Shown here: one piece after another, positions 20,678-35,580 of the stretch
How the letters are laid out: each line of letters starts with the position of its first letter
Numbering within the stretch: position 1 is the stretch's first letter
Assembly (NCBI RefSeq): GCF_900086655.1
Contig: NZ_LT575476.1
Span: 2,701,869 to 2,765,868, forward strand
DNA length: 64,000 nt
Origin: Paenibacillus tuaregi
Lineage (GTDB): Bacteria > Bacillota > Bacilli > Paenibacillales > Paenibacillaceae
Direction of reading: 5' to 3'
Notes under the pieces: generated by a model
What the model was told of the DNA's origin: nothing
Database searches by the model: none
What the model saw: the letters and a program-made list of their open reading frames with translations, nothing else
Made by a program: the position numbers and the translations under genes

Positions 20678-21430
20678 TCAATCCGACTGAGATATATGAT
20701 GCATAATAGCACGATATAGAAAATCTGCGAAATTCTCATTGCCATATTGATTAAAGTAGTTATTGAATCGTGCATCGGATTTATAAGTATCGGCAATGCA
20801 AGCCAGCAGCTCTGTATCACATGGCATGAACTGCATGAGGATTTTTTTCCACTTCTCAATTAATCGCTGAACTTCATCGGAAGAAGGAGGCCGATCCATA
20901 CAAGACGCAAGTTGCTTGAATACTTCCTCCATCGATCGATAACGTTCATCTATCTCATCTTGGGATAGTTTATCCATTGTTTCGTTAAACACTTGATACG
21001 CTTCTGTTTCACCATAAATGAATCTCGCCTCATTTGCGTATTGTTCTTTTAAAGGTAGAACGGAAGAACTGTTGAAGATTTGTAAGTGACTGATATCACT
21101 GCCCGAAACGTATTCTTCGAGGGCTATCATGATGGTTTCTAGTCTTTGCTTTTTCGATAACAAGGTTTGGCTGTGCTTCTTTAATAATTGTTTCTGTTCC
21201 TGCCTGGTCAGCTTTAAAATGTCCGCAATTTCTTTCAAGGAGAAATCCAATTCCTTTAAGAATAAAATCGTTTGAAGTTTTTCCAAACTGCTTCGATCAT
21301 ACAAGCGGTACCCTTTTTCGGTCAGATATGTCGGTTTAAATAAATCAATCCGATCGTAATAATGCAAGGTCCGGCTTGTAATGCCTGTAATCCGAACAAT
21401 ATCTTTAACTGCTAATAGTGGTTTCTTCAT
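20678..21430 (-). CDS. MerR family regulator with TipAS-like effector domain
   Basis: 250 aa. The N-terminal MerR winged helix (LLAVKDIVRITGITSRTLHY, then DRIDLFKPTYLTEKGYRLYD) is followed by a dimerisation coiled coil (about 75-110) and a C-terminal all-helical TipAS-type domain (about 130-248), which in TipAL binds thiopeptide antibiotics and other drugs. It is the second gene of an operon, overlapping the DUF2268 gene by 26 bases, with AAAGGA 8 bases upstream of ATG 21430. The promoter in front of the operon has the MerR hallmark of a 19-bp spacer, so this protein very likely activates its own operon. Confidence 0.9.
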   Translation of the reverse strand: MKKPLLAVKDIVRITGITSRTLHYYDRIDLFKPTYLTEKGYRLYDRSSLEKLQTILFLKELDFSLKEIADILKLTRQEQKQLLKKHSQTLLSKKQRLETIMIALEEYVSGSDISHLQIFNSSSVLPLKEQYANEARFIYGETEAYQVFNETMDKLSQDEIDERYRSMEEVFKQLASCMDRPPSSDEVQRLIEKWKKILMQFMPCDTELLACIADTYKSDARFNNYFNQYGNENFADFLYRAIMHHISQSD

Positions 21431-22331
21431 CCCAAAATCCTTTTACTTCGTCTAGTATTTGCGCAGCTGGTGTGATTGTGGCCTCAAAAATCGTTTTTCC
21501 TGTTTTTCTTAAATAATATTGGATTAAATAATAGCCGCATGCGTAGCCAGCGCTGTAAGGCATATTAACCGGTTCAAGGTTTTGAAGCTTTGCGATCTCA
21601 TCTCCGTAAAGATACGGAGCAAATTGATCAAATCCTGTTAATTGCAGTTGATCTCTAAGGACAGGCTTGATGCGCTTGTTAAGTGTGTCTGCGTTTGTTC
21701 TCGTTACCCAAGGGCCGAGGAATTCTTCGCCAAACATGAACGTAGCATAGTTTTCAGCTAATCCTTCACTTACAATGAGCTCGCCCAAATTAACGGTGTG
21801 ATCCCACTGAATAAATTGATATCGCACATTATGGTTGCATTCGTGCGCCAGCGAAGCCTTCATTCGGGGAATCGTATACTCATTTGGCAGGAGTGTACCC
21901 CAGATAAACCCCGGAATGCCCCCAAAGCCGCTATATCCTTCGTTGATAACCAAGGCACGGCTTTCCGGATTCCCTAGCTGAATGGTAAACAAATATTCGG
22001 ATACAGGGAGATTAATTCCCTGCTCTATAAATAAATGTAGACTTTTCCTCACAGCATGCTCACACTCTGACCAAAATGTCTCGGACGAAATCTGCTCAAT
22101 CTCTGCCGAAATCTGAGGGGTAATCTGATCAGGGGAACGATGCATCATGTTATTAAACGAAATCACGTCAAAACCATTCGTTTCTTCAGCTTTAAAAGGG
22201 ATCTGCTGAATTTGCCATTGCTTCATAAAGGGAGCCATCATTTCGTTTCTGAATAATTCAAGCTTTTCATCAGGCGAAGCTTGGGCAACCTTTTGATAAA
22301 TGTGGTCTGAACGCAGCGTTCTTATATTCAT
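21405..22331 (-). CDS. DUF2268 putative zinc metalloprotease
   Basis: 308 aa from ATG 22331 (MNIRTLRSDHIYQKVAQ), spaced 8 bases from AGGAG; GTG 22340 lies inside the RBS. The zinc motif is HECNH in SLAHECNHNVRYQF, an HExxH type, and the downstream segment LGELIVSEGLAENYATFMFG supplies the third ligand, as is usual for DUF2268. No signal peptide. These are predicted Zn-dependent proteases found in Bacillus and Paenibacillus with unknown targets. It is first in the operon with the MerR/TipAS regulator, so it is probably drug- or stress-induced. Confidence 0.85.
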   Translation of the reverse strand: MNIRTLRSDHIYQKVAQASPDEKLELFRNEMMAPFMKQWQIQQIPFKAEETNGFDVISFNNMMHRSPDQITPQISAEIEQISSETFWSECEHAVRKSLHLFIEQGINLPVSEYLFTIQLGNPESRALVINEGYSGFGGIPGFIWGTLLPNEYTIPRMKASLAHECNHNVRYQFIQWDHTVNLGELIVSEGLAENYATFMFGEEFLGPWVTRTNADTLNKRIKPVLRDQLQLTGFDQFAPYLYGDEIAKLQNLEPVNMPYSAGYACGYYLIQYYLRKTGKTIFEATITPAAQILDEVKGFWDEETTISS

Positions 22332-22362
22332 TTCTCTCACTCCTATTTATTAGATAGAGAGA

Positions 22363-24456: not shown

Positions 24457-25167
24457 CTATCGCTGTGGAAGCAGCGGACGAAGGGCATCCGCCCAGAGTT
24501 GATACCCTTGCTCCGTCAAGTGGCAGAAGTCGGACGCCATTTGCTGTGTCAGCGTACCGTCCGCCTCAAGCAGCTTCAGGCCGATGTCAACAAAGGCGTA
24601 ATTGCGTTTCTTGGCTAATTCCGCATACCTGGCATTGATTTCTGCGATCAATGTGCGGCGGGGATGGTCCGGCTTCTCCTCACGGGGAAGTACAGCCATG
24701 ATGACGATTGCTGCATGCGGCACATGGACATGAACGCGGTCGCAGATCGCCCGCAGGCCCTCCGCAATTTCGTCCGGATCGTTGGCGCGGGCGTTCACAG
24801 TCTCGCTCGTGTTATTTGTCCCGATCAGAATTACAACTGTTGTTGGGTTTAGGCCGGTCAGCTCACCGTGATCGATTCGCCAGAGCACATTCTGTGTTCG
24901 GTCCCAACCAAAGCCGAGATTGAGCACTCGATAAGAGGCGAATACGGATCGCCATGCCTCCTTCGCCCCTTCTATCCCCTCTGTCTGCGGATCGCCTCCC
25001 CAGAAATGGGTAATGGAATCACCAATCAAGACAACTTCCGGGTTGATCTTATCCTTCTCCCGCAGCACCTGTTCGTGGCGCTCCCACCAATCGTAGCAGT
25101 CCTCCTCTAGCTTCGGCACGGGAATAACTGCGGTGTTGACCTTGGCCGCATCGTTCATATTTGCCAT
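24457..25167 (-). CDS. SGNH/GDSL-type esterase
   Basis: 236 aa, no signal peptide. Block I is LIGDSITHFWGG with nucleophile S51, the oxyanion Gly is in NLGFGWDR, block III Asn is N118 in IGTNNT, and the acid/base pair is D213 and H216 in DFCHLTEQGY. It resembles the PAF-acetylhydrolase Ib-like branch, which often deacetylates sugars or lipids. A GGAGG RBS sits 8 bases before ATG 25167. The small XRE gene lies 21 bases upstream on the same strand and may be co-transcribed. Confidence 0.9.
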   Translation of the reverse strand: MANMNDAAKVNTAVIPVPKLEEDCYDWWERHEQVLREKDKINPEVVLIGDSITHFWGGDPQTEGIEGAKEAWRSVFASYRVLNLGFGWDRTQNVLWRIDHGELTGLNPTTVVILIGTNNTSETVNARANDPDEIAEGLRAICDRVHVHVPHAAIVIMAVLPREEKPDHPRRTLIAEINARYAELAKKRNYAFVDIGLKLLEADGTLTQQMASDFCHLTEQGYQLWADALRPLLPQR

Positions 25168-25612: not shown

Positions 25613-25631
25613 AGCCGCGATTTACGCGGCT
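25613..25631 (-). terminator. Terminator of the SWIM-MoxR-VWA operon
   Basis: AGCCGCG (25613-25619), a 5-base loop, and CGCGGCT (25625-25631) pair perfectly. On the minus strand TTTTGCATTTT follows. It lies 38 bases beyond the VWA stop, closing the five-gene operon. Confidence 0.75.
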
Positions 25632-25668: not shown

Positions 25669-26886
25669 TCACCCTGACTTCGATCCTACCCGCTTTGCAA
25701 GTTCGGCTAAATCTAACCCTTTCAGCGCGCCTTCTACGAGTTCAGGCAGTAACGCAGGTGTACAAGCAAAACAAGGCGTTCCATCCCGAGCGAGCTGTCT
25801 CGCAACATGTTCGTCATAGAACGGTTGGCCCTGATCCGACAACGCGAGCAAGCACATCGTTCGTACACCCGCTTCTCGCAGTTCACGCATCCGTCGTATC
25901 AATGTGGATTGATTGCCGCCCTCGTATAGATCCGAAATGATGATAAACAAGGTCTTCTTCGGTTCTTCCACAAATTGCTCACAATAGGCAACAGATTTGT
26001 TAATATCCGTTCCGCCGCCCAATTGAATGCCGAACAGCATCTCCACAGGATCGTTCGCGCATTGCTCTGTCAAATCTACAACTTCCGTATCGAATACGAC
26101 GACACGTGTACGCAGCGCAGGAATGCTGGCGAAGATCGAACCGATGACCGAGGCCCATATGACCGAATCCGCCATCGATCCGCTCTGATCAATATCCAGA
26201 ATCACCGTCCATTCCTGACTGCGCTGTGCCCGGTCAAAAAAGTAGAACTTTTCCGGTATAATCTGACGGCTCTCTCGATCATAATGCTTCAAATTCCGCT
26301 GAATTGTACGCTTCCAATCGATACCGCTCACAGAAGGGAGCGGGGAATGCTGCCGACGGTTCAATGCTCCAGTAACCGCGCGCCGGATGTCGTGTTCGAG
26401 ACGCTTGACTAGTTCTTCCACAACGGAAGCTACCAACATTCTTGCTGTGTCCTTCGTCTTTTCCGGAATTTTCCCTTTCAACGATAACAGCGTGCCCACC
26501 AATTGAATATCGGGTTTTACTTGGGCTAGCACTTCAGGCTCGAATAGGAGCTGCTTCCACCCCTTTCTTTCCATCGCATCGTTCTGAATGATCGAGACGA
26601 CATCTTCGGGGAAACATTGTCTGACATCACCGAGCCATTTGGATAGTCGGGGCGCAGACTTGCCGAGACCTGCATTTCTCCCCGCAGAAGACCCGGTGCT
26701 GCTCTGCCCCGTATTTTCCCCACCTGTATCATCATAGATTGCCGCCAAGGCTTCATCCATAATTCTCTCTTCTTCCGTTAACGCAATGCTCCCGCCTGAA
26801 CAACAGCCCGCAAGCTGCTTCTCGGCAGAAGCGCCTAATATCAATCTCCATCTCGTCACTGTCTGTGTATCTGCATAGTTGTCCAT
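25669..26886 (-). CDS. VWA domain protein with MIDAS, partner of the MoxR ATPase
   Basis: 405 aa. A helical N-terminal half (1-220) with a Ser/Gly-rich linker near 55-75 is followed by a von Willebrand factor A domain. The MIDAS motif is DIDQSGSMAD (D233, S235, S237), with the later Thr in GGGTDINK and Asp in IISDLYEGG, so metal binding should be intact. The N-terminal helical region plus C-terminal VWA is the form seen in MoxR-associated VWA proteins, which adapt the ATPase to targets. It is the last gene of the operon, 2 bases after the DUF5682 gene. Confidence 0.9.
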   Translation of the reverse strand: MDNYADTQTVTRWRLILGASAEKQLAGCCSGGSIALTEEERIMDEALAAIYDDTGGENTGQSSTGSSAGRNAGLGKSAPRLSKWLGDVRQCFPEDVVSIIQNDAMERKGWKQLLFEPEVLAQVKPDIQLVGTLLSLKGKIPEKTKDTARMLVASVVEELVKRLEHDIRRAVTGALNRRQHSPLPSVSGIDWKRTIQRNLKHYDRESRQIIPEKFYFFDRAQRSQEWTVILDIDQSGSMADSVIWASVIGSIFASIPALRTRVVVFDTEVVDLTEQCANDPVEMLFGIQLGGGTDINKSVAYCEQFVEEPKKTLFIIISDLYEGGNQSTLIRRMRELREAGVRTMCLLALSDQGQPFYDEHVARQLARDGTPCFACTPALLPELVEGALKGLDLAELAKRVGSKSG

Positions 26887-26888
26887 GG

Positions 26889-29243
26889 TCAGAATTCCTC
26901 AAAATCAAAATCATTTAGCTCGTCAATCATCTTTACTTCGTCCTCCTTCAATTCCCCCGTCAAAATCTCAGCTGCTTGATCGGCATGAACTCCCCACAAT
27001 TCACCTAATAACTCGGCAATCATCGTTTTCTCGCGCGGAGCGAACGAGCTGAAAGCCCGCCGCAGGAACACGAGCGCACGAGCAAATTCATCATCGCTCA
27101 GTGAGACAATGTACGCATTCAACTGCTCCCATAAGCTCTGCCGGGATAGAAGGGCATACCGATTGCGCTGCGACACCCCTTCGAACCAGCCTGCGCCGAG
27201 GTCTGCTGGAATGCCGGGAGAGAGCCTTCTAGATACTTCTTCAGCACATTGCTGAGCGGTAATGGCATGACGTTCCATTAAGATGGCGCAAGCAAAACCG
27301 GAGAGACGCGGATTCCGATCATCCCTTTCGGATAAATGCAGTAGCTCTTGAAGCCATAACGCTTCATCCACTTGGTCGCTATGCTCCAAGGAAATCCGGT
27401 TCAGCTCATTCATCGCCGACATCATGTCGTTTGCCCTCTCGTCATTGCACTGCGCTGCATCTTGGAGGAACAGGCATGCCCTCATAAATAATTGTTCCAG
27501 GAGCGGCAGCAACCGTGCGGTATCCATGCGGCGCAAGCCGCCGTAACCGATAATCATGGACAGCTCTTTCGCTGCGGCAGCGATCTGGACCACATCACGG
27601 CTATCTGCGGCAAGCCGCTGCAGGGTCTGCCGTGCGGTTTCCATCTGCTCCAGCATACGGCAATCGCATGCTGTACGGATCAGTAAAGATGCGTCCGCGA
27701 TGGTTGTGCAGCTATCCAACTTCTGCTGCAGCACATACGCAGAGGCTACTTCAATCGTCTCCCCAAGAAGCGTCGATTCCACTACCTGAATTTCCACCTC
27801 GGGAGACCATTGAATCACCCAATGCTCTGCCCAAGTTGCATGTTCCTGCCCGCTAGGACGAAGCTTCGCAAAAGAGATGCCGAGCCATGCCAAGCGATGC
27901 AATAACGTGGACCGATTCAAATCAAGGAAGGCAGAGTCTTCCGATGTAACCCGGCGATTCTCACGTAAATCCAGGGATAAGTCGGTCGCCACGGTTGTCT
28001 TGTATTTCTCGAGCTTCAATTGCTTCAACAGGCGATTCAGATCATCTTGAATCGGGGTCTGGCTGACACCTTCGGCCAATGAACCGATGGCAGTTCCGAC
28101 ATCAACGCGTGCGAGCGCTTCTGCGATGACAGAGAGGTCGCCGCGTCCCAGCAACGTCTGAGCAGCATCTCTCAAATCACGAAGGGTTGGCGCGCTCCCT
28201 CCATGCATAGCTGCTAGTGCTTCCGCAAGCCGAACCGCTTCGATCACTTCAGCGGTTGAACGATGGTTCCCCGTCTCCCTCATCCACCTTGCGATTGATG
28301 ATAAGTAATAATGCGGAAGCTCCTCCAGCGCGTTGGTCCGCATGCGCTCCCACATCATTTGATAATAATTCGGCGCATTATTGCCTGCCCCGTAGCCGGA
28401 CATCGAAGATAACTTATAATACGAATAAGGCATAAGTGTCAGCTTCGTCTTCCGGGATGGCAGCTGTGTACACTCTTGATCCGTCATGGCATGGTAATCG
28501 TGTGCCAGCGCAGACGCATGATATGCTCCGCAGACGACAACAATGCGGTTCGGTTCATGGCCTGCGGCAATCGTGTCCTGAATCTGTCTGCGCATGTAAG
28601 CTTCTCGAACTGCGTTATAGGCGTATTCCACGCGTTGATGCTGCCTCTCCTCTTCCTCCGTCAGTTCGCGCATCTGTGTAGAGAAGGCGATAATTGCCTC
28701 CTGATAGGCCCCTTTGGTAGGATTGAGCTCATAATTACGCTCCCAGTACATATCGTAATCATACTCGCCTGCAATCGCAGCGATACGACTGTAAATGGAA
28801 GAATCGTTGGGAAAATAGGAAGCGGAATTGGTATCGGTATCGCTACGCTCTCCAGTTACCGTATCATTATCCTCCGCGTTTTCTTTCGCTTCTGATCGCA
28901 GCTGCTGCATCGCAACCGTAACTGAGGACGGCAGGTCGATAAATGCGGCGTGAGCTCCATTCTCAGCTGCCCATTTCATGGCTTGATACTCCGGGGAGTA
29001 GGCAGCGAAAGGCCATAAAACCGTTCGAACAGGGATATCCTCTGTAAAAGCGAGAATGGCGACAGGCGGAGTTGTGTTCCGGTTCGTTAGGTGATGGAGC
29101 TCCGAATTCGCATCTGCGGGTCCTTCAATGAGTACGGCGGTTGGCTGCACTTCCTGCAGCAGCTCCAGAAGATGCAAGGAGCCGCCGGGTGACAGATGCC
29201 GCACACCAAAGATATGTACAGCGGCCGCCGCTACGCTATTCAC
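26889..29243 (-). CDS. DUF5682 family protein, ChaN/TraB-like N-terminal region
   Basis: 784 aa, cytoplasmic. The N-terminus reads HIFGVRHLSPGGSLHLLELL, then AVLIEGPADANSELHHL, and later VVVCGAYHASALAHDY (about 235-250). The order GxxH, conserved Glu, GxxH recalls the ChaN/TraB/erythromycin-esterase-like superfamily, so a hydrolytic or metal-dependent active site is plausible but unproven. The remaining 500 residues are helical with acidic stretches. It overlaps the MoxR ATPase gene by 4 bases and precedes the VWA gene by 2 bases, so it is translated with both. The DUF5682 name is from recall of its N-terminal pattern. Confidence 0.8.
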   Translation of the reverse strand: MNSVAAAAVHIFGVRHLSPGGSLHLLELLQEVQPTAVLIEGPADANSELHHLTNRNTTPPVAILAFTEDIPVRTVLWPFAAYSPEYQAMKWAAENGAHAAFIDLPSSVTVAMQQLRSEAKENAEDNDTVTGERSDTDTNSASYFPNDSSIYSRIAAIAGEYDYDMYWERNYELNPTKGAYQEAIIAFSTQMRELTEEEERQHQRVEYAYNAVREAYMRRQIQDTIAAGHEPNRIVVVCGAYHASALAHDYHAMTDQECTQLPSRKTKLTLMPYSYYKLSSMSGYGAGNNAPNYYQMMWERMRTNALEELPHYYLSSIARWMRETGNHRSTAEVIEAVRLAEALAAMHGGSAPTLRDLRDAAQTLLGRGDLSVIAEALARVDVGTAIGSLAEGVSQTPIQDDLNRLLKQLKLEKYKTTVATDLSLDLRENRRVTSEDSAFLDLNRSTLLHRLAWLGISFAKLRPSGQEHATWAEHWVIQWSPEVEIQVVESTLLGETIEVASAYVLQQKLDSCTTIADASLLIRTACDCRMLEQMETARQTLQRLAADSRDVVQIAAAAKELSMIIGYGGLRRMDTARLLPLLEQLFMRACLFLQDAAQCNDERANDMMSAMNELNRISLEHSDQVDEALWLQELLHLSERDDRNPRLSGFACAILMERHAITAQQCAEEVSRRLSPGIPADLGAGWFEGVSQRNRYALLSRQSLWEQLNAYIVSLSDDEFARALVFLRRAFSSFAPREKTMIAELLGELWGVHADQAAEILTGELKEDEVKMIDELNDFDFEEF

Positions 29244-30343
29244 TCGTTCATCTCCTTACAGGCTGTGTACAGACCTCGCCATTCTGCGCCGCGCTTCTTC
29301 ATCACATTATCGAGATACTCTTTCCAGACCAGCTTATCTTTTACGTCATCCTTGACGATGGCTCCTTGCAAACCTGCGGCAAGATCTTCATCTGTAATGT
29401 CGCCATTGCCGAAGCTCGCTGCTAAAGCCATGGAGTTCGTGAGCAGAGAAATTGCCTCCGCTGTGGAGATTACACCCGCAGGAGATTTCAGCTTCTCCTT
29501 CTTATCGAGTGTCATCCCACTGCGCAATTCCCGGAAGATGGTTACCACCTTAATCAGCGCCTCATCCGCAGGGACAGCGGCTTGCAGATCATAGGAGGAA
29601 GCAATTTCACGTACTCTTTTCTTCACAATTTCGACTTCTGTGTCCATATCGCTTGGTGTCGGCAGGATCAGAATATTGAAGCGACGCTTCAGGGCTGCCG
29701 ACATCTCATTGACACCCCGATCCCGCGTGTTCGCCGTAGCGATAATCGAGAACCCTTTCCGTGCACTAACCTCTCGGCTGAGCTCTGGAACCGAAATCGT
29801 CTTCTCCGATAGAATCGAGATCAGCGCATCCTGTACCTCAGAAGCACATCGTGAAATTTCTTCGAAACGGGCAATACCTCCGGCTTCCATCGCCCGCATC
29901 ACAGGGCTCTGCACAAGCGCCTCCGGTGTAGGTCCATTCGCGAGCAGCATGGCATAGTTCCATGTGTATCGCACATGCTCCTCACTCGTGCCCGCCGTCC
30001 CCTGAACAACAAGGCCGGAATTTCCATAAATGGCGGCGGTTAGATTTTCGGATAACCAGGATTTAGCCGTACCAGGCTCCCCAATTAACAGCAGCGCACG
30101 ATCAGTAACCAGCGTGGCGATGGCCATTTCAATCAGCCTTTTGTTGCCAATGTATTTAGGTGTAATCACCGTTTTACCGACTTTCCCTCCAGTAATGAAC
30201 GTAAGTACGGATTGCGGGGACATCTGCCATCCAGCAGGGACCTTCCCTTTATCTGCTTTCTTAAGAGCAGCTATTTCTTCTTGATATAATTGCTCGGCTG
30301 GCAGCCGCATCATCTCTTGCCATTGCTCTTGACTCGTAACCAT
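29240..30343 (-). CDS. MoxR-type AAA+ ATPase
   Basis: 367 aa. Walker A is GEPGTAKS (88-95), Walker B is ARFEEI (158-163), sensor 1 is IATANTRD (201-208), and the arginine finger lies in ALKRRFNILIL (about 220). This is the AAA+ core of the MoxR/RavA group, which remodels or activates proteins together with a VWA partner, here two genes downstream. The RBS AGGAG precedes ATG 30343. A 155-base gap separates it from the HEAT-repeat gene, long enough for an internal promoter. Confidence 0.92.
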   Translation of the reverse strand: MVTSQEQWQEMMRLPAEQLYQEEIAALKKADKGKVPAGWQMSPQSVLTFITGGKVGKTVITPKYIGNKRLIEMAIATLVTDRALLLIGEPGTAKSWLSENLTAAIYGNSGLVVQGTAGTSEEHVRYTWNYAMLLANGPTPEALVQSPVMRAMEAGGIARFEEISRCASEVQDALISILSEKTISVPELSREVSARKGFSIIATANTRDRGVNEMSAALKRRFNILILPTPSDMDTEVEIVKKRVREIASSYDLQAAVPADEALIKVVTIFRELRSGMTLDKKEKLKSPAGVISTAEAISLLTNSMALAASFGNGDITDEDLAAGLQGAIVKDDVKDKLVWKEYLDNVMKKRGAEWRGLYTACKEMNE

Positions 30344-30498
30344 TTTCCCATCTCCTAATGATCTTTTCTATATAAATTGAATTAAGCAAGGTTTACACAG
30401 TTCGGGCCCTGCGATGCCGAGTGTTCATACGACCGCTGTTGTCTCCAAAATCCTTGAACTAGACATCCTGTGTCGCATTTCGAAGACCGTGATCAAAA

Positions 30499-32361
30499 TT
30501 ACACAGAATCCGTCACGACCGCTTCATGCTTCTTTCTTTCCATCTCGTTCCATACATATTGCAGCTGTTCGCGAGCGGTATACCGATATTTCTGGATCAT
30601 ATCAGCCAGACGATCTTGATAACTTAAAGGCAGCTGATATAAATTTTCCAGCACAGGGCCTTCGAACGAGTAAAGATTGCCACCCCGCTTTTGTTCAAGC
30701 ACATTCATGAGCAATTCCAACCGGATTGATGCATCTACCCCCGCTCGTTCAAGGCCAAGAAGCAGAATATCCAAGGATGGATGACGCAGATCTGTCATGT
30801 CTCGCATCCGCTCTGTTAGGAATGACTGCGATTCCGTATGGTCCGGCCGCGCGAACACACAGACGAGATGAGTGGCCTGGATCTCAATCAGCCAATCTAA
30901 CCAACGCGAATCCCATAGCTGTGCGACCTGTTCTACAGGCATCATTTCCACTGTGCTCAGGTAAATTGACTCTCCAGGGGAGCCCCACAGATTAGGGTAA
31001 AGCTGATAGGGATAGGCAATCACTTGCTCTTCCAGTATAGATAGGAACTGCTTCAGTTTTTTCTGGGTCTCCTTATTGGTTTTCATCTTCCATTTGTTAC
31101 GAATGGAATGCACATAGTGCTCATACAACGCGGATGGCGAGAGCTGCCGGAACGAAGCACGGAAGGCATAGGACAGGTAGCGCATATTGTGTTGTTCTAA
31201 GGCATATAGAGCTTCCAAAGCTTCCAAGGAATTTTCGTGTTCCAAGTAATGTGCTGCGGCATCCACAAGATCGAGTCCAGCAGAAGAAATATATAATGAA
31301 TATTGTCTTGATACCTCAAGGTATAGTTCATATAACGTGTCGCTCCTTTTCCCTTCCAGAGCGGTGAGAACGTGCCTCATTTTTTTCTGTGATGCTTCTG
31401 CCTTCTTCTTATCTTCTTTGTACTCAAGTAGGTGCTTCAGCTCTTCACCGAGATCACGAACCAGCCATGCCGTTAATTGCTCCGAGCTGCATTTGGCAGC
31501 GGCTTCAGCTGCGATTTCGATGTCTTTGCCCGCAAAAGCTTCATAGATCCGTTCAACCGCTGCCTCATCGTTCATTACTGCTAAGGCTTGATAGGCCGCT
31601 TCACGAATCGATTTCTTCTTGTCTCTCGTCCAAGTGAGCAAATCTGACGCAAAGGAAGCATGAGCTGCTAGAAGACGAATCGCCGTCACACGAACTTCCT
31701 CCGACCCGGCTTCAGCTGCCTGAAAGATCAGATCCAATACGTCTTCTCCACCGGCCTGCCCGATCACTTGAAGCTTGCGGCTCTCTACCTTGCCTCCCAT
31801 TGGATCGAAGCTGTCGATCAGATAGGGCACGACCTCAGCCCCATAGGATGGAAGGATCTTCTGCATTGCAAATTCAGCGATCTCCGAGTAGGGATCCCCC
31901 AGCGCTCGAACGGCAAGCTCCAGCAGACGAAGATCCCGGAACATGCCTTCTTCGAATGCGTGAGCAACCACCTCATACCGATTGCTTCCTGTCGTCGTAA
32001 GCGCCTCCTCCACAGCAGCCAGCTTGCGATATGAAAGAAATGTGGATAAGGATACGGGGTGATTCTCTAGTGGCCGAAGCTCACCCTGCGGTGTTGTTAT
32101 GCCTTGTGTACGAAGCACGGAAGTCAGAAGTAGATTCAAATCCTGCAGCTGTTCTGCAGATTGATAGTTTTCTGCATCCTTAGGCTCAATTAGAGCCGCA
32201 ATCCCCTCCCCTAATCTCTTAAAAATCGGTGCTCGCTCGCCAAGCTGCAGGAATTGCGGCAGCATCCGTTTTAGCCGGTAATCCCCGAGTGCCAGATCGC
32301 TTCCTGCGATGTAGATTCTGCGAAGCTCTTGATGGAGCTCTTGTAGTAAGTCTGTGCTCAT
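30499..32361 (-). CDS. HEAT-repeat protein of the MoxR operon
   Basis: 620 aa from ATG 32361 (MSTDLLQELHQEL), 7 bases after AGGAGG; the ATG two codons earlier is too close. The protein is almost entirely helical. The middle contains HEAT-like units, for example EVRVTAIRLLAAHASFASDL followed by KSIREAAYQALAVMNDEAAV, preceded by PYLIDSFDPMGGKVESRKLQ. Such superhelices serve as binding scaffolds. It begins 5 bases after the SWIM gene stop, so the two are co-translated. No enzymatic motif is visible. It may belong to a DUF family that accompanies DUF5682. Confidence 0.75.
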   Translation of the reverse strand: MSTDLLQELHQELRRIYIAGSDLALGDYRLKRMLPQFLQLGERAPIFKRLGEGIAALIEPKDAENYQSAEQLQDLNLLLTSVLRTQGITTPQGELRPLENHPVSLSTFLSYRKLAAVEEALTTTGSNRYEVVAHAFEEGMFRDLRLLELAVRALGDPYSEIAEFAMQKILPSYGAEVVPYLIDSFDPMGGKVESRKLQVIGQAGGEDVLDLIFQAAEAGSEEVRVTAIRLLAAHASFASDLLTWTRDKKKSIREAAYQALAVMNDEAAVERIYEAFAGKDIEIAAEAAAKCSSEQLTAWLVRDLGEELKHLLEYKEDKKKAEASQKKMRHVLTALEGKRSDTLYELYLEVSRQYSLYISSAGLDLVDAAAHYLEHENSLEALEALYALEQHNMRYLSYAFRASFRQLSPSALYEHYVHSIRNKWKMKTNKETQKKLKQFLSILEEQVIAYPYQLYPNLWGSPGESIYLSTVEMMPVEQVAQLWDSRWLDWLIEIQATHLVCVFARPDHTESQSFLTERMRDMTDLRHPSLDILLLGLERAGVDASIRLELLMNVLEQKRGGNLYSFEGPVLENLYQLPLSYQDRLADMIQKYRYTAREQLQYVWNEMERKKHEAVVTDSV

Positions 32362-32372
32362 CTTCATTCCTC

Positions 32373-33812
32373 CTAATACAAGAGACGGAGCATTTCCGTA
32401 TCTTTCAATATCGTTAAAGGCATTGCTGTTAACTGCCCCGTGTCCATATCGTGCTCGAACCGAACCAGCATGCTTATATCCTCTAATTGCGATGCAGACA
32501 AATGCTTGAACAGTGGAAGGGTCCGATGCCCATTTGATTCGTGATCCCGTAACACGAGATGTTGACCGGATTCATCAGCAATGACAACTTCATCTTGATT
32601 GGATTGCTTAACCTCGGCCACATGCAGCAGCACGAGCGGATTGGCGTGACTTAGCGGATTCTTCAACTGGGTTTTCACTTTTTTGATGACATCTGTATAC
32701 GACCGCTCGGCATATTTGGATATATCCAGGGTCTCATGCGACTCGAGCGGTCTAACAGCCATCTCTTCCCACCGAACTCTTCGGTTCATATCCCCTGGAT
32801 ATTGATATAAGGAAGGAATACGCACAGCATCAAAGAAGCTGTCCTCTTCACGCATCAGCTTAGCTGCTTTGTAAGGCCGATATTGAATCGTTCGATGAAT
32901 CTCTCCGCTGTCTCGCTCCAGCCAATACCCTTCGTCAACATACTCTTGTCTTGCCGAATCGTCATAACTTACAAATGCGAGCTGAACCAACTCTACCTGC
33001 TCCTTCATCAGCCCGTATTCCTTCAGATCTGTGAGCTGCCATGCATGTCCCAGCCATTCCTCGATCGTTGATTCATGATCAAGCGCGAGTGCCGGATCTT
33101 CCAATTTGCTTGTTAAATGGGCACGTCCCTTCTTAATAAAAGCATGCATTACGGCCAATTGCTCTCCGACATCTGTGTAGATTTGCTCACGATCATCTGC
33201 ATCCGAGAGCAGTAAGGTAAGCCGCCGCAACTCCGTCTGCGCGCCCGTGAGATAATAATTCCCCATCTGCTTCACATGTTCTTGCATCGTCTTGATGACC
33301 TTCTTATCCATCGTTCCCAGACCGTTGCGAACCAAGGATCGCAGCAGCTTCTCGAGCACATCCAATCCTTCGAGCTGAGATTGGACTTTTTTCTTGAGCG
33401 CTGTCTTGTTCACCTTTTTAGGCTTGGGTTCCGCCCCTTGACTCGTCTGTTGCGACTTCTTCTCTTCCCGCTTCTCCGCTTTTTCCCGTTTGGCAACAAT
33501 GTCTTCCGGTACTGCGGCGGTAGTGAAGGCTTCTCCCCCGGTGTAGGCATATAACAGTCCCAACGCATGCTTACACGGCAGCTGCCTGCTTGGGCAAGAA
33601 CAGCGCAGGATCGGTTTATCAGGTTGGATGAAATCTGCGGAACATTGGTAATTCGAGCTTCCGCTTCCTTTGCATTCCGCGAATAACAAGGTACCATCTT
33701 CGGATTGATGCAGCTGCACGAAACTTCGCTTCTTCACCAGACCTTGTGCATTTTTTATCGCCGCGGCATTCGAAGCCAGTGAATCCACGTATGATGCTGT
33801 AATTTCAATCAA
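32373..33812 (-). CDS. SWIM zinc-finger protein, first gene of the MoxR operon
   Basis: 479 aa. The SWIM motif CxCx6CxH is intact at C71, C73, C80, H82 (RCSCPSRQLPCKHALG). A charged Lys/Glu-rich linker (about 105-145, KREKAEKREEKKSQQ) separates it from a helical middle and a C-terminal region of unknown fold (about 290-479). SWIM domains bind DNA or proteins. As first gene in the operon it may give the system target recognition. No transposase or helicase domain, which often carries SWIM, is attached. Confidence 0.87.
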   Translation of the reverse strand: MIEITASYVDSLASNAAAIKNAQGLVKKRSFVQLHQSEDGTLLFAECKGSGSSNYQCSADFIQPDKPILRCSCPSRQLPCKHALGLLYAYTGGEAFTTAAVPEDIVAKREKAEKREEKKSQQTSQGAEPKPKKVNKTALKKKVQSQLEGLDVLEKLLRSLVRNGLGTMDKKVIKTMQEHVKQMGNYYLTGAQTELRRLTLLLSDADDREQIYTDVGEQLAVMHAFIKKGRAHLTSKLEDPALALDHESTIEEWLGHAWQLTDLKEYGLMKEQVELVQLAFVSYDDSARQEYVDEGYWLERDSGEIHRTIQYRPYKAAKLMREEDSFFDAVRIPSLYQYPGDMNRRVRWEEMAVRPLESHETLDISKYAERSYTDVIKKVKTQLKNPLSHANPLVLLHVAEVKQSNQDEVVIADESGQHLVLRDHESNGHRTLPLFKHLSASQLEDISMLVRFEHDMDTGQLTAMPLTILKDTEMLRLLY

Positions 33813-34077: not shown

Positions 34078-35580
34078 TTATAATAGCGGGGTTGCGAACT
34101 TCACCTCCGGAAAGCGGTTATCCGGTCCTTTCATTAAGGTTCCGCCTTGATTTTTCAGATGCTTATCGAAGAAATCCAGCATATAGGCATTGATCACGAA
34201 GTCCGCTCTTTCGGGTGCAATCTTTCCTGTAACGCCCAGCATTTTGAAAATCGGAGAAATGTACTGTACGTCCGTAAAATTCAAATGCTCCGTAGCTTCG
34301 ATATAGAGGAATTGTCCCCCTGAAGCAACCGTTTCGCGCATCCGCTTGAGCTCTAACTTTTTATCCTCCGCTACTTGATCCTCCCACTCTCTTGTTGAAC
34401 CCATACGGTTAAGCTCATCATCCGTGTAGACCCGGCTATCCAACACCATTTTTAATTTTTCGAAATAGCTTTCCGAGTTGATGAACAAAAACGGCTTTCG
34501 CAGACCTTCTCTGTCACGCATACGATAAAGCCCTCCATCAAGGTCTATTCCAACTGCGATTCGCGGATCGTAAGCAGCGTCATAGGCCGTTGCTCCGCCG
34601 ATGGAATGACCGAACACACCAATATGGCCGAGATCAATCCTTCCTTTTAGATGACTTGGAATCTTCCCCGATTGGATAAGCTCGAATTGATCCAGTGTAA
34701 ACGCCACATCGTCGGTTAGTACTTTTCCCAACTTGTCACGACTTTCTCTACTCGTCTTGTAATCATCGCCCGGAGAGAATAAGTCGTTGGTTGTACTGGT
34801 CGTGATTCGCCCGTCCGGAAACTCGGTTGCAAATGTATTGTAGGTGTGGTCGATCACGGCAACGATGTATCCGTGACTCGCGAGATTTTCGGCTTGCGAC
34901 GTGTGGAGGAACCTGGAAGAGCCGTTGCCGGGATTCGCAAGGATCAGCGGGTATGAAGTCTGTGCCGAAGAGACTTCGGCCCCCGAATAAGCATGACTGG
35001 ATACGTACTTCAGGTGTTGAAGAGTAAATCCGGGAAGGCCATAGTTCGCAGCCATATAACGCAAAATCTGGGGATTGGGAACAAAGGGAGCGTACTTGCC
35101 GGTGCCAGCTTGAGCCGGATACCATACCTGAACCATCAGCTCTCTCTTACTGTCTCTGGCTTCATCGAAAGTTTCTTCCCTATTTGGATCCACAAAATGA
35201 AAAGTTTGCGTTCCTACTTTAAATTCGCCAGTCGGTTCAGGTAGTTTAAATACAGGAAAAACATACATGAGACTTGCGGTTGCGGCCAGCATTAATGCTA
35301 TAGCGGTATAAGCTGAACCCAACATGAAGCGTGGAATTTTTTTTGGGCCGGTCTTTGTGAAATAGCTATAACCTGAAATGGCTAAAAAAATGATCGTTAG
35401 GCAATATGAGAATAATAGCTGAAGTCTATATCCTTCCACCGTCCAATGAATGACCAGTAAAAGTGTGGCGATTCCGCTTGCAGCGAAGACTGGAATTCTA
35501 CGCCGTCCTTTTTTTAATAGGACGGTTATTGCAAACAAGCCGATGTTTGACAAAACAAGCAACAATTCAAACAGCCTCAT
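34078..35580 (-). CDS. Membrane-anchored alpha/beta hydrolase, PAF-acetylhydrolase-like
   Basis: 500 aa. Four membrane helices fill residues 1-120 (LLLVLSNIGLFAITVLL through AIALMLAATASLMYVFPVF). The catalytic domain follows, with the nucleophile elbow FGHSIGGATAYDAA near residue 325, the acid probably in AVGIDLDGG, and a late His in ATEHLNFTDV. The layout and the FVPNPQILRYMAANYG segment match the platelet-activating-factor acetylhydrolase plasma/intracellular isoform II family. The substrate is unknown; short acyl lipids are likely. Monocistronic. Confidence 0.85.
   Translation of the reverse strand: MRLFELLLVLSNIGLFAITVLLKKGRRRIPVFAASGIATLLLVIHWTVEGYRLQLLFSYCLTIIFLAISGYSYFTKTGPKKIPRFMLGSAYTAIALMLAATASLMYVFPVFKLPEPTGEFKVGTQTFHFVDPNREETFDEARDSKRELMVQVWYPAQAGTGKYAPFVPNPQILRYMAANYGLPGFTLQHLKYVSSHAYSGAEVSSAQTSYPLILANPGNGSSRFLHTSQAENLASHGYIVAVIDHTYNTFATEFPDGRITTSTTNDLFSPGDDYKTSRESRDKLGKVLTDDVAFTLDQFELIQSGKIPSHLKGRIDLGHIGVFGHSIGGATAYDAAYDPRIAVGIDLDGGLYRMRDREGLRKPFLFINSESYFEKLKMVLDSRVYTDDELNRMGSTREWEDQVAEDKKLELKRMRETVASGGQFLYIEATEHLNFTDVQYISPIFKMLGVTGKIAPERADFVINAYMLDFFDKHLKNQGGTLMKGPDNRFPEVKFATPLL

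What the first reader, a model, noticed from the sequence alone, without database searches (positions are those of the whole stretch)
25669..33812. Five-gene SWIM-HEAT-MoxR-DUF5682-VWA operon, a candidate undescribed protein-remodelling or defence system
Seen: five minus-strand genes with gaps or overlaps of 5, 155, -4 and 2 bases and a terminator at the end. They encode an intact SWIM CxCx6CxH finger, a HEAT scaffold, a complete MoxR AAA+ ATPase, a large protein with GxxH...E...GxxH motifs and an intact MIDAS VWA protein. Known: MoxR plus VWA pairs act as chaperone-like machines that activate or remodel targets. Inference: SWIM and HEAT recognise a target (nucleic acid or protein), MoxR/VWA remodel it, and DUF5682 acts as effector. 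To my knowledge the biochemical role of this set has not been assigned.
Basis: partly seen in the sequence, partly recalled or inferred. Interest (0 to 1): 0.82.

Follow-up and report, generated by a model that had tools for sequence, protein, structure and literature searches.

The report
Five-part MoxR machine, hidden Tiki hydrolase
Five neighbouring bacterial genes, found together in many species and with a sister version in E. coli, appear to build an ATP-driven machine that couples a nucleic-acid-binding protein to a previously unrecognised Tiki-type hydrolase, which would give an old set of 'unknown function' genes a testable job.

Summary
In detail: five intact minus-strand genes (SWIM, HEAT, MoxR, DUF5682, VWA) with the stated spacing. 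They are inherited as a unit: in 59 related genomes MoxR, DUF5682 and VWA occur in the same 13, SWIM and HEAT in 12 of those; 67 of the 80 best-matching loci elsewhere carry all five, and nine of the 13 others stop at contig ends. The set is not wholly undescribed: E. coli yehI-yehL-yehM-yehP-yehQ is a second form with DUF4132 in place of HEAT, and YehL names a MoxR subfamily; I found no paper assigning a function. New here: DUF5682's N-terminal half belongs to the Tiki/TraB/ChaN superfamily, with invariant His16, Glu40, Arg213 and His242; the SWIM protein is predicted to end in two OB folds; DUF5682 often ends in a disordered DFDF tail, absent from one DUF5682-VWA fusion. Best reading: an ATP-gated hydrolase recruited by a nucleic-acid-binding adaptor. 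Anti-phage defence is not supported (no fitting defence family, nothing in viral contigs, near-core in E. coli) but not excluded. Catalysis, binding and substrate are untested.

The parts
32373..33812 (-). SWIM protein, 479 aa (TTG start): SWIM zinc finger, helical linker, predicted C-terminal tandem OB folds
   Evidence: model pLDDT 90.6; fold comparison
33567..33602 (-). SWIM zinc finger CSCPSRQLPCKH, residues 71-82
   Evidence: Sequence; C71, C73, C80, H82 invariant in the 43 aligned sequences
32394..33026 (-). Residues 263-473: predicted tandem OB folds resembling RPA70, telomere-end-binding and HIN domains
   Evidence: Foldseek best E 6.1e-05 with low TM-scores, 0.13-0.21 by query length for the six matches at E <= 0.001; VIA Z 7.0 to 5.5 for RPA, HIN and telomere chains
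30499..32367 (-). HEAT-repeat scaffold, 622 aa, at the operon position held by DUF5691 proteins in other phyla
   Evidence: Pfam HEAT_2 27.7 bits, no DUF5691 match of its own; DUF5691 at that position in Deinococcus, Rhizobium and Hymenobacter
29240..30343 (-). MoxR AAA+ ATPase of the YehL type, 367 aa
   Evidence: AAA_5 124.8 bits; 41% identical to E. coli YehL and 41-89% to the other 14 rows aligned
30059..30082 (-). MoxR Walker A GEPGTAKS, residues 88-95 (motif name recalled)
   Evidence: Sequence; six of the eight positions invariant and S95 nearly so in 16 sequences
26889..29243 (-). DUF5682 protein, 784 aa (GTG start): Tiki-superfamily N-terminal domain plus helical-repeat C-terminal half
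   Evidence: Pfam 515.5 bits; model pLDDT 85.8
28338..29216 (-). DUF5682 residues 10-302: Tiki/TraB/ChaN-like domain with H16, E40, R213, H242
   Evidence: hhalign to the TraB family: prob 95.1, score 65.4, against a best score of 22.3 in 100 column shuffles; at E up to 1, Pfam ChaN in 10 of 38 and TraB in 6 of 38 members, best E 1.3e-04 each
26910..27830 (-). DUF5682 residues 472-778: HEAT-like helical repeat
   Evidence: VIA best Z 9.0, with an Ssu72 entry matched over 333 residues (its helical partner symplekin, recalled), and 8.6-8.3 with PP2A entries; middling for helical repeats
26901..26912 (-). DFDF motif near the C-terminus of DUF5682 (residues 778-781), in a predicted disordered tail
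   Evidence: Strict DFDF in the last 10 residues of 78 of 103 DUF5682 ORFs and 0 of 4495 other open frames of at least 90 aa; pLDDT under 50 at 779-784
25669..26886 (-). VWA protein (CoxE-like), 405 aa, with intact MIDAS residues and conserved N-terminal RWRLxLG
   Evidence: VWA_CoxE 170.2 bits; D233, S235, S237, D319 invariant and T293 nearly so in 15 sequences
25613..25631 (-). Terminator-like hairpin with T-rich tail at the end of the operon

Best explanation
The operon encodes a five-subunit YehL-class MoxR/VWA machine whose active arm is DUF5682, a Tiki-superfamily hydrolase (most likely a peptidase or esterase) joined to a helical-repeat scaffold. The SWIM protein binds a nucleic acid (single-stranded DNA or RNA) through its zinc finger and two OB folds and, with the HEAT scaffold, marks the place or target of action. 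The VWA protein holds DUF5682, in many lineages perhaps through the acidic-aromatic C-terminal DFDF tail, and the MoxR hexamer uses ATP to remodel the VWA-DUF5682 contact so that the hydrolase is released or loaded onto the marked target. In form B (E. coli yehI-yehLMPQ) a DUF4132 protein is present instead of the HEAT protein. Shown here: co-inheritance, gene order, the superfamily assignment of DUF5682 by profile comparison, invariant candidate active-site residues, fused genes, the conserved tail. Predicted only: the OB folds. Inferred: hydrolysis, nucleic-acid binding, VWA-tail contact, and a role in stress or protein quality control.
For: Co-inheritance: in the same 59 genomes (own included) DUF5682, MoxR and VWA have strong matches in the same 13, SWIM and HEAT in 12 of those, and only weak matches elsewhere. 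Of the 80 best-matching loci, 67 carry all five. Tiki domain: hhalign of the DUF5682 N-terminal profile to TraB gives prob 95.1, score 65.4 over 202 columns, against at most 22.3 in 100 column shuffles and 20.4 reversed; GxxH, Glu, Arg-x-x-x-Met and GxxH line up. At E up to 1, ChaN and TraB are the only other Pfam families hit by more than one of 38 members. H16, E40, R213 and H242 are invariant in those 38; in the model H16 and H242 follow strands, E40 lies in a strand, R213 in a helix. The Arg-to-second-His spacing of 29 equals that of a solved Tiki endopeptidase (section read in PMC6254334). SWIM: residues 1-99 match the SWIM region of a ZSWIM8 entry, Z 11.3, rmsd 2.6, 96 residues; 263-473 match RPA70 and HIN chains. 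Physical links: DUF5682::VWA fusions in L046 and L162, SWIM::HEAT fusion in L163. Tail. In 6 Lachnospiraceae loci a ClpS gene and a gene of about 770 aa (ClpA-like in the 3 scanned) follow VWA.
Against: No activity is shown. hhalign to the erythromycin-esterase family found nothing (prob 0.2); the same profile found nothing in PDB by sequence (best E 0.23); the rows shown of the PDB fold searches (50 of 665 Foldseek and 50 of 873 VIA matches) contain no Tiki protein that I recognise, being filled by the C-terminal helical half. The catalytic set differs from that of the compared endopeptidase: its Glu two residues before the first His is Val14 here, and the first His-to-Glu spacing is 24, not 28. 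ChaN is named haem-binding, so a non-catalytic role is possible. OB matches have middling Z (5.5-7.0) and low TM-scores, and OB folds also bind proteins. Even by the looser pattern the tail is missing in the six form B sequences counted and in seven others (Deinococcus, Rhizobium, Methylobacterium, Methylosinus, Nonomuraea, Nocardia, Hymenobacter). The L046 fusion may be a decayed operon, since SWIM and HEAT are absent, and in the second fusion, L162, the VWA match starts early enough (profile position 11) that its N-terminal motif may be kept. The 80 loci are the best matches only and lean to Bacillota.
Confidence: 0.45

Rival explanations
1. A dedicated maturation chaperone: MoxR and VWA insert a metal or cofactor into, or assemble, one particular enzyme complex, as CoxD/CoxE, NorQ/NorD or CbbQ/CbbO do (pairs partly recalled). 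DUF5682 would be a client-binding or cofactor-binding (ChaN-like) subunit and not a hydrolase.
For: The VWA protein is a CoxE-family member (170.2 bits). Characterised MoxR proteins have maturation roles (passages of PMC3893208). ChaN, named haem-binding, is the other Pfam family most often hit by DUF5682 N-termini (10 of 38).
Against: No constant client enzyme gene was seen beside the operon: the commonest neighbour family reaches 10 of 148 flanking ORFs scanned. The candidate active-site His, Glu, Arg and His are invariant in 38 aligned sequences. A nucleic-acid-binding subunit is unexpected for cofactor insertion.
Confidence: 0.25
2. An anti-phage or anti-plasmid defence system: SWIM/OB and HEAT sense foreign nucleic acid, MoxR/VWA trigger, and the DUF5682 hydrolase is the toxic effector, like the MoxR-vWA ternary conflict systems.
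For: Patchy: 13 of 59 relatives, 5 of 299 genomes of the phylum sample over the cut-off, own included. Some plasmid copies lie near restriction or PDDEXK-nuclease genes (Iodobacter, Hymenobacter) or toxin-antitoxin and immunity genes (Methylosinus). PHROGs holds viral families matching VWA (226.7 bits) and the DUF5682 N-terminus (90.2 bits). The sensor-chaperone-effector logic matches that in PMC7159879 (passages).
Against: PADLOC gives no fitting family for any of the five. No relative in viral contigs by three queries. yehLM is near-core in E. coli, 5164 of 5426 genomes. The commonest neighbour families are regulatory or metabolic.
Confidence: 0.15
3. A nucleic-acid repair or restart machine, for instance remodelling protein-nucleic-acid complexes (stalled complexes or crosslinked proteins), in which the Tiki domain cleaves the protein and the SWIM-OB protein holds the strand.
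For: OB folds resembling RPA and telomere proteins. Midasin, which dismantles ribonucleoprotein complexes (recalled), is the best solved sequence match of the MoxR protein (E 1.7e-12).
Against: No repair gene is a constant neighbour; RtcB reaches 2 of 148 flanking ORFs. No damage phenotype appeared in the papers searched.
Confidence: 0.15

Closest known systems
E. coli K-12 yehI-yehK-yehL-yehM-yehP-yehQ (YehL-subfamily MoxR operon)
   Same: MoxR, DUF5682 (YehM), VWA and SWIM genes side by side on one strand; YehL is 41% identical to the window's MoxR.
   Different: Order DUF4132-yehK-MoxR-DUF5682-VWA-SWIM; DUF4132 protein (1210 aa) and no HEAT gene; the three form B SWIM proteins aligned carry a second CxC..CxH; no DFDF tail.
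MoxR-vWA ternary conflict systems (VMAP, iSTAND, FtsH, beta-propeller), eLife 2020, PMC7159879
   Same: MoxR plus vWA pair with an extra protein; chaperone and co-chaperone logic (passages).
   Different: The partners are SWIM, HEAT and DUF5682; no propeller or FtsH domain in the Pfam scan; the held main text contains neither 'SWIM' nor 'YehL'. The bpMoxR model stops just under its cut-off (26.6 against 27 bits).
Tiki superfamily hydrolases (Tiki, TraB/GumN, Ere, ChaN)
   Same: GxxH, Glu, Arg, GxxH pattern and a profile match to TraB.
   Different: DUF5682 carries a large C-terminal helical-repeat half and sits in a MoxR operon; the Glu before the first His is Val; no profile match to Ere.
RavA-ViaA (E. 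coli MoxR-VWA pair)
   Same: MoxR ATPase with a VWA partner encoded in one operon (passages of PMC3893208).
   Different: Another MoxR subfamily; to my knowledge without a DUF5682, SWIM or HEAT partner (recalled).

Membership tests
YehL-class MoxR operon | MoxR of the YehL type adjacent to DUF5682, VWA and SWIM genes | tested here: met
YehL-class MoxR operon, E. coli form (B) | DUF4132 protein in the operon | tested here: not met
   The window has a HEAT protein instead; a midpoint-rooted FastTree of MoxR puts the six form B loci plus Streptomyces L162 in one clade, support 1.0. The window is form A, not form B
MoxR-vWA ternary conflict systems (PMC7159879) | Beta-propeller fused to the vWA | tested here: not met
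   VWA protein of 405 aa with the VWA_CoxE match at 163-382 and no other Pfam match
MoxR-vWA ternary conflict systems (PMC7159879) | VMAP, iSTAND or FtsH third component | tested here: inconclusive
   None appears in the Pfam scan of the five proteins, but I did not check that Pfam has models for VMAP and iSTAND
Tiki superfamily | GxxH, Glu, basic residue and GxxH in this order | tested here: met
   H16, E40, R213, H242 invariant in 38 aligned sequences, first Gly nearly so; aligned with the TraB motifs
Tiki superfamily | Profile similarity to a known member family | tested here: met
   TraB prob 95.1 (controls); not to Ere, prob 0.2. Ere to TraB itself gives 86.5
Tiki superfamily | 2His/2Glu catalytic set of active members | tested here: inconclusive
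   Both His and one Glu are present; the Glu two residues before the first His is Val14
Tiki superfamily | Parallel beta-sheet core fold | tested here: inconclusive
   The model has alternating strands and helices at 10-272, but the fold-search rows were filled by the C-terminal half
Tiki superfamily | Hydrolase activity | not testable with these tools
   -
Known anti-phage defence systems (PADLOC-DB 2.0.0) | Match to a defence family model | tested here: not met
   Only a weak Specificity_I match of MoxR, 17.2 bits
OB-fold single-stranded nucleic-acid binders | OB fold(s) in the SWIM protein | tested here: inconclusive
   Model pLDDT 90.6; Foldseek E down to 6.1e-05 but TM 0.13-0.21 by query length, VIA Z 5.5 to 7.0

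The most novel reading that the evidence does not exclude
A widespread, undescribed class of ATP-gated, nucleic-acid-guided Tiki peptidase: a MoxR/VWA motor deploys a Tiki hydrolase on proteins bound to, or marked by, single-stranded DNA or RNA that a SWIM-OB adaptor recognises, with the DUF5682 C-terminal DFDF peptide as the VWA handle in many lineages.
Probability: 0.22. Interest if true: 0.88.

Novelty: new variant of a known kind. Interest (0 to 1): 0.62.

Why it matters
E. coli yehL, yehM, yehP, yehQ and yehI still carry placeholder names. A superfamily for DUF5682, named candidate catalytic residues, a predicted nucleic-acid-binding subunit and a predicted docking tail make a long-standing blank directly testable in E. 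coli K-12, and would join MoxR chaperones with Tiki hydrolases, two groups that I did not see linked in the papers searched.

Tried and rejected
Defence-island reading: 148 flanking ORFs of the 273 called from 77 loci were scanned. PADLOC at 1e-5 hit 113 families (25 listed, by number of members), only four of them in more than one protein; no control set was run, so this is a weak negative. Viral origin: three viral-contig scans gave no relative; in the phage collection three protein queries found only MT835988, an unverified faecal scaffold; the PHROGs matches were not traced to their genomes.

HEAT and DUF4132 as distant homologues: hhalign 0.2%; the partner exchange rests on operon membership only. 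The window's HEAT protein is not matched by the DUF5691 model, and the HEAT profile used in the surveys was built from both kinds. Ere family as relative of DUF5682: not found. N-terminal profile against PDB sequences: nothing (best E 0.23). NCBIfam gave only MoxR relatives far below cut-off. Weak hits outside the operons (MoxR under 80 bits, SWIM under 30, HEAT under 35) were treated as other families and not counted. From the tail count L020, L023, L032, L033, L046 and L162 were dropped as broken, duplicate or fused; the looser tail pattern gives 90 of 103. L049 and L091 look like the same records as genomes G014 and G055 (equal contig lengths).
Full report
WHAT IS THERE. One search confirms five minus-strand ORFs at 25669-33812 with gaps or overlaps of 5, 155, -4 and 2 bases, and a terminator-like hairpin at 25631-25613. 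Pfam names them SWIM, HEAT_2, AAA_5 (MoxR), DUF5682 and VWA_CoxE. Next to them lie a PAF-AH-like gene (34078-35580) upstream and, downstream, a 90-residue ORF without a Pfam match and a GDSL hydrolase gene (24457-25167); I do not count these as part of the set.

ONE INHERITED UNIT. The same 59 genomes (the window's own included) were searched for each protein. DUF5682, MoxR (hits over 500 bits) and VWA are in the same 13 genomes; SWIM and HEAT are in 12 of those 13; 46 genomes have no strong match to any. If genomes were exchangeable, the chance of two identical sets of 13 would be 2.5e-13; relatedness makes the true figure larger. Within the genus 9 of 35 other genomes have DUF5682, and in the phylum sample 5 of 299 are over the cut-off, own included: patchy. 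Of these 80, 67 carry all five genes. Nine of the other 13 end within 220 bases upstream of the first gene found (one of them, L089, also shows no VWA in 1604 bases downstream); two have 728 and 1319 bases upstream; two with ample room lack genes: L046 (DUF5682 fused to VWA, no SWIM or HEAT) and L060 (DUF5682 alone, in a MAG). Six of the 67 have two or three HEAT genes.

TWO FORMS. Form A, SWIM-HEAT/DUF5691-MoxR-DUF5682-VWA: the window, Deinococcus, Rhizobium (28), Hymenobacter (30, where DUF5682 is split into three frames, and 109), Methylosinus (105, VWA in pieces in my scan), Fusobacterium (111). Form B has a DUF4132 gene and no HEAT gene: E. coli yehI-K-L-M-P-Q, Iodobacter (29), Agrobacterium vitis (32), Sinorhizobium (106), Proteus (111, no SWIM match over 30 bits) and one genome of the window's own genus (G029; its SWIM match, 18.5 bits, is just under the cut-off). 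In a midpoint-rooted FastTree of MoxR the six form B loci plus Streptomyces L162 make one clade (support 1.0). That HEAT and DUF4132 proteins do the same job is inference; hhalign sees no similarity.

DUF5682 IS A TIKI-SUPERFAMILY PROTEIN. Pfam calls it a family of unknown function. A profile of its N-terminal 297 residues (38 sequences) matches the TraB/GumN family with probability 95.1 and score 65.4 over 202 columns (pairwise E 3e-08); 100 column shuffles reach at most 22.3 and the reversed profile 20.4. In the same test the recognised pair Ere-TraB gives 86.5, and DUF5682 against Ere, MoxR, VWA, SWIM and HEAT profiles gives 0.3 or less. GxxH with GxxH, Glu with Glu, RExxM with RDxxM (template families' form; the first template row reads RNxxM) and GAYH with GAxH line up. 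Scanning the 38 members against 24736 Pfam models at E up to 1, ChaN (10 members) and TraB (6; best E 1.3e-04 each) are the only other families hit by more than one. H16, E40, R213 and H242 are invariant in the 38. In a Tiki endopeptidase with solved structure (passages and one section read in PMC6254334) the conserved Arg and second His are 29 apart, as here (213, 242); its first His and Glu are 28 apart (24 here), and its Glu two residues before the first His is absent here (Val14). The model (pLDDT 85.8) has alternating strands and helices up to residue 272 and helical repeats from about 480; the latter resemble HEAT proteins (best Z 9.0), which is middling for helical repeats. The fold-search rows hardly reach the N-terminal half.

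THE SWIM PROTEIN. The model has pLDDT 90.6. Residues 1-99 match the SWIM region of a ZSWIM8 entry (Z 11.3, rmsd 2.6, 96 residues); 263-473 match RPA70, HIN and telomere chains (Z 5.5-7.0; Foldseek best E 6.1e-05 with low TM-scores). Nucleic-acid binding is therefore a prediction, not a result.

PHYSICAL LINKS. DUF5682::VWA fusions: L046 (1187 aa) and L162 (1269 aa). SWIM::HEAT fusion: L163 (1009 aa); L158 has both in one long open frame of uncertain start. Many DUF5682 proteins end in a peptide that is disordered in the window's model: strict DFDF in the last ten residues of 78 of 103 ORFs and of 0 of 4495 other open frames of at least 90 aa in the same sequences. In L046 the DFDF tail is absent and the VWA match begins at profile position 21, so the conserved RWRLxLG start of VWA seems absent too. 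Covalent joining making a docking pair unnecessary is one reading; a single deletion across the gene boundary in a decaying operon is another. In L162 the VWA match begins at position 11, so the motif may be kept there. Form B and seven other loci lack the tail.

CONTEXT. Of 148 flanking ORFs scanned the commonest Pfam families are response regulators (10), LuxR HTH (7), aldo/keto reductases (6), ClpS (6) and semialdehyde dehydrogenases (6). The six ClpS genes (recognised by their sequences) lie directly downstream of VWA in loci titled Lachnospiraceae, each followed by a gene of 769-784 aa; the three of these scanned are ClpA-like AAA+ proteins. This points to protein turnover but may reflect shared ancestry. 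yehLM is near-core in E. coli (5164 of 5426 genomes with at least 80% of the query). Viral contigs gave no relative, but PHROGs holds a family matching the VWA protein (226.7 bits) and one matching the DUF5682 N-terminus (90.2 bits), both of unknown function.

LITERATURE. Nine searches bearing on the set and one on Tiki, in an open-licence library with capped lists, showed no paper assigning a function to the set. From passages: YehL is one of the MoxR subfamilies (PMC3893208; PMC11432383); MoxR-vWA ternary systems (PMC7159879). Isolated mentions: yehQ among mutated genes tested in a butanol-tolerance study (PMC6442406, passages), yehM mutated under copper (PMC12409786, passages), yehL and yehK in a paper on deuterated-protein production strains (PMC6881287, listing and start of abstract).

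JUDGEMENT. The gene set is real, widespread and co-inherited, and its E. coli form is catalogued but unexplained. What is new here is the Tiki assignment of DUF5682, the predicted OB folds, the tail and the fused genes. The most likely mechanism is an ATP-gated Tiki hydrolase recruited by a nucleic-acid-binding adaptor (confidence 0.45); a maturation chaperone is the main rival.

Noticed in passing
L068, L069, L073, L099, L109, L114, just downstream of VWA: ClpS gene followed by a gene of about 770 aa, ClpA-like in the three scanned, in line with the five-gene operon.
   Followed up: partly
L023 (NZ_CP103756.1, E. coli plasmid): A chromosomal-type block yehI to yohO sits between IS26 copies on a plasmid typed conjugative that also bears CTX-M-15.
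   Followed up: no
L060: Solitary DUF5682 with intact DFDF tail in a Prevotellaceae MAG, next to a glycoside-hydrolase gene; may be a binning or assembly effect.
   Followed up: partly
L021 (MT835988.1): A record labelled bacteriophage carries MoxR-DUF5682-VWA and further genes; an unverified faecal scaffold, probably bacterial.
   Followed up: partly
window 25669-26886 and 26889-29243: PHROGs families 31592 and 30700 (unknown function) match the VWA protein and the DUF5682 N-terminus, although no viral contig or clear phage record was found.
   Followed up: partly
window 29240-30343: The position where MoxR proteins usually carry a sensor-2 arginine (recalled motif) reads STAEA; S293, E296 and A297 are invariant in 16 sequences.
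   Followed up: no
L044, L073, L081, L099, L104, L114: Two or three HEAT genes in tandem in the operon, as if the recognition part were duplicated.
   Followed up: no
L017 8762-8998 and L020 9368-9979: An extra small gene of unknown function between MoxR and DUF5682 in Deinococcus and Hymenobacter.
   Followed up: no
window genome outside the window (G000:C4): Five erythromycin-esterase-family (PF05139) matches in the window's genome, also counted to the Tiki superfamily (PMC6254334 passages).
   Followed up: no
window 21405-22340: DUF2268 predicted Zn-dependent protease near the operon.
   Followed up: no
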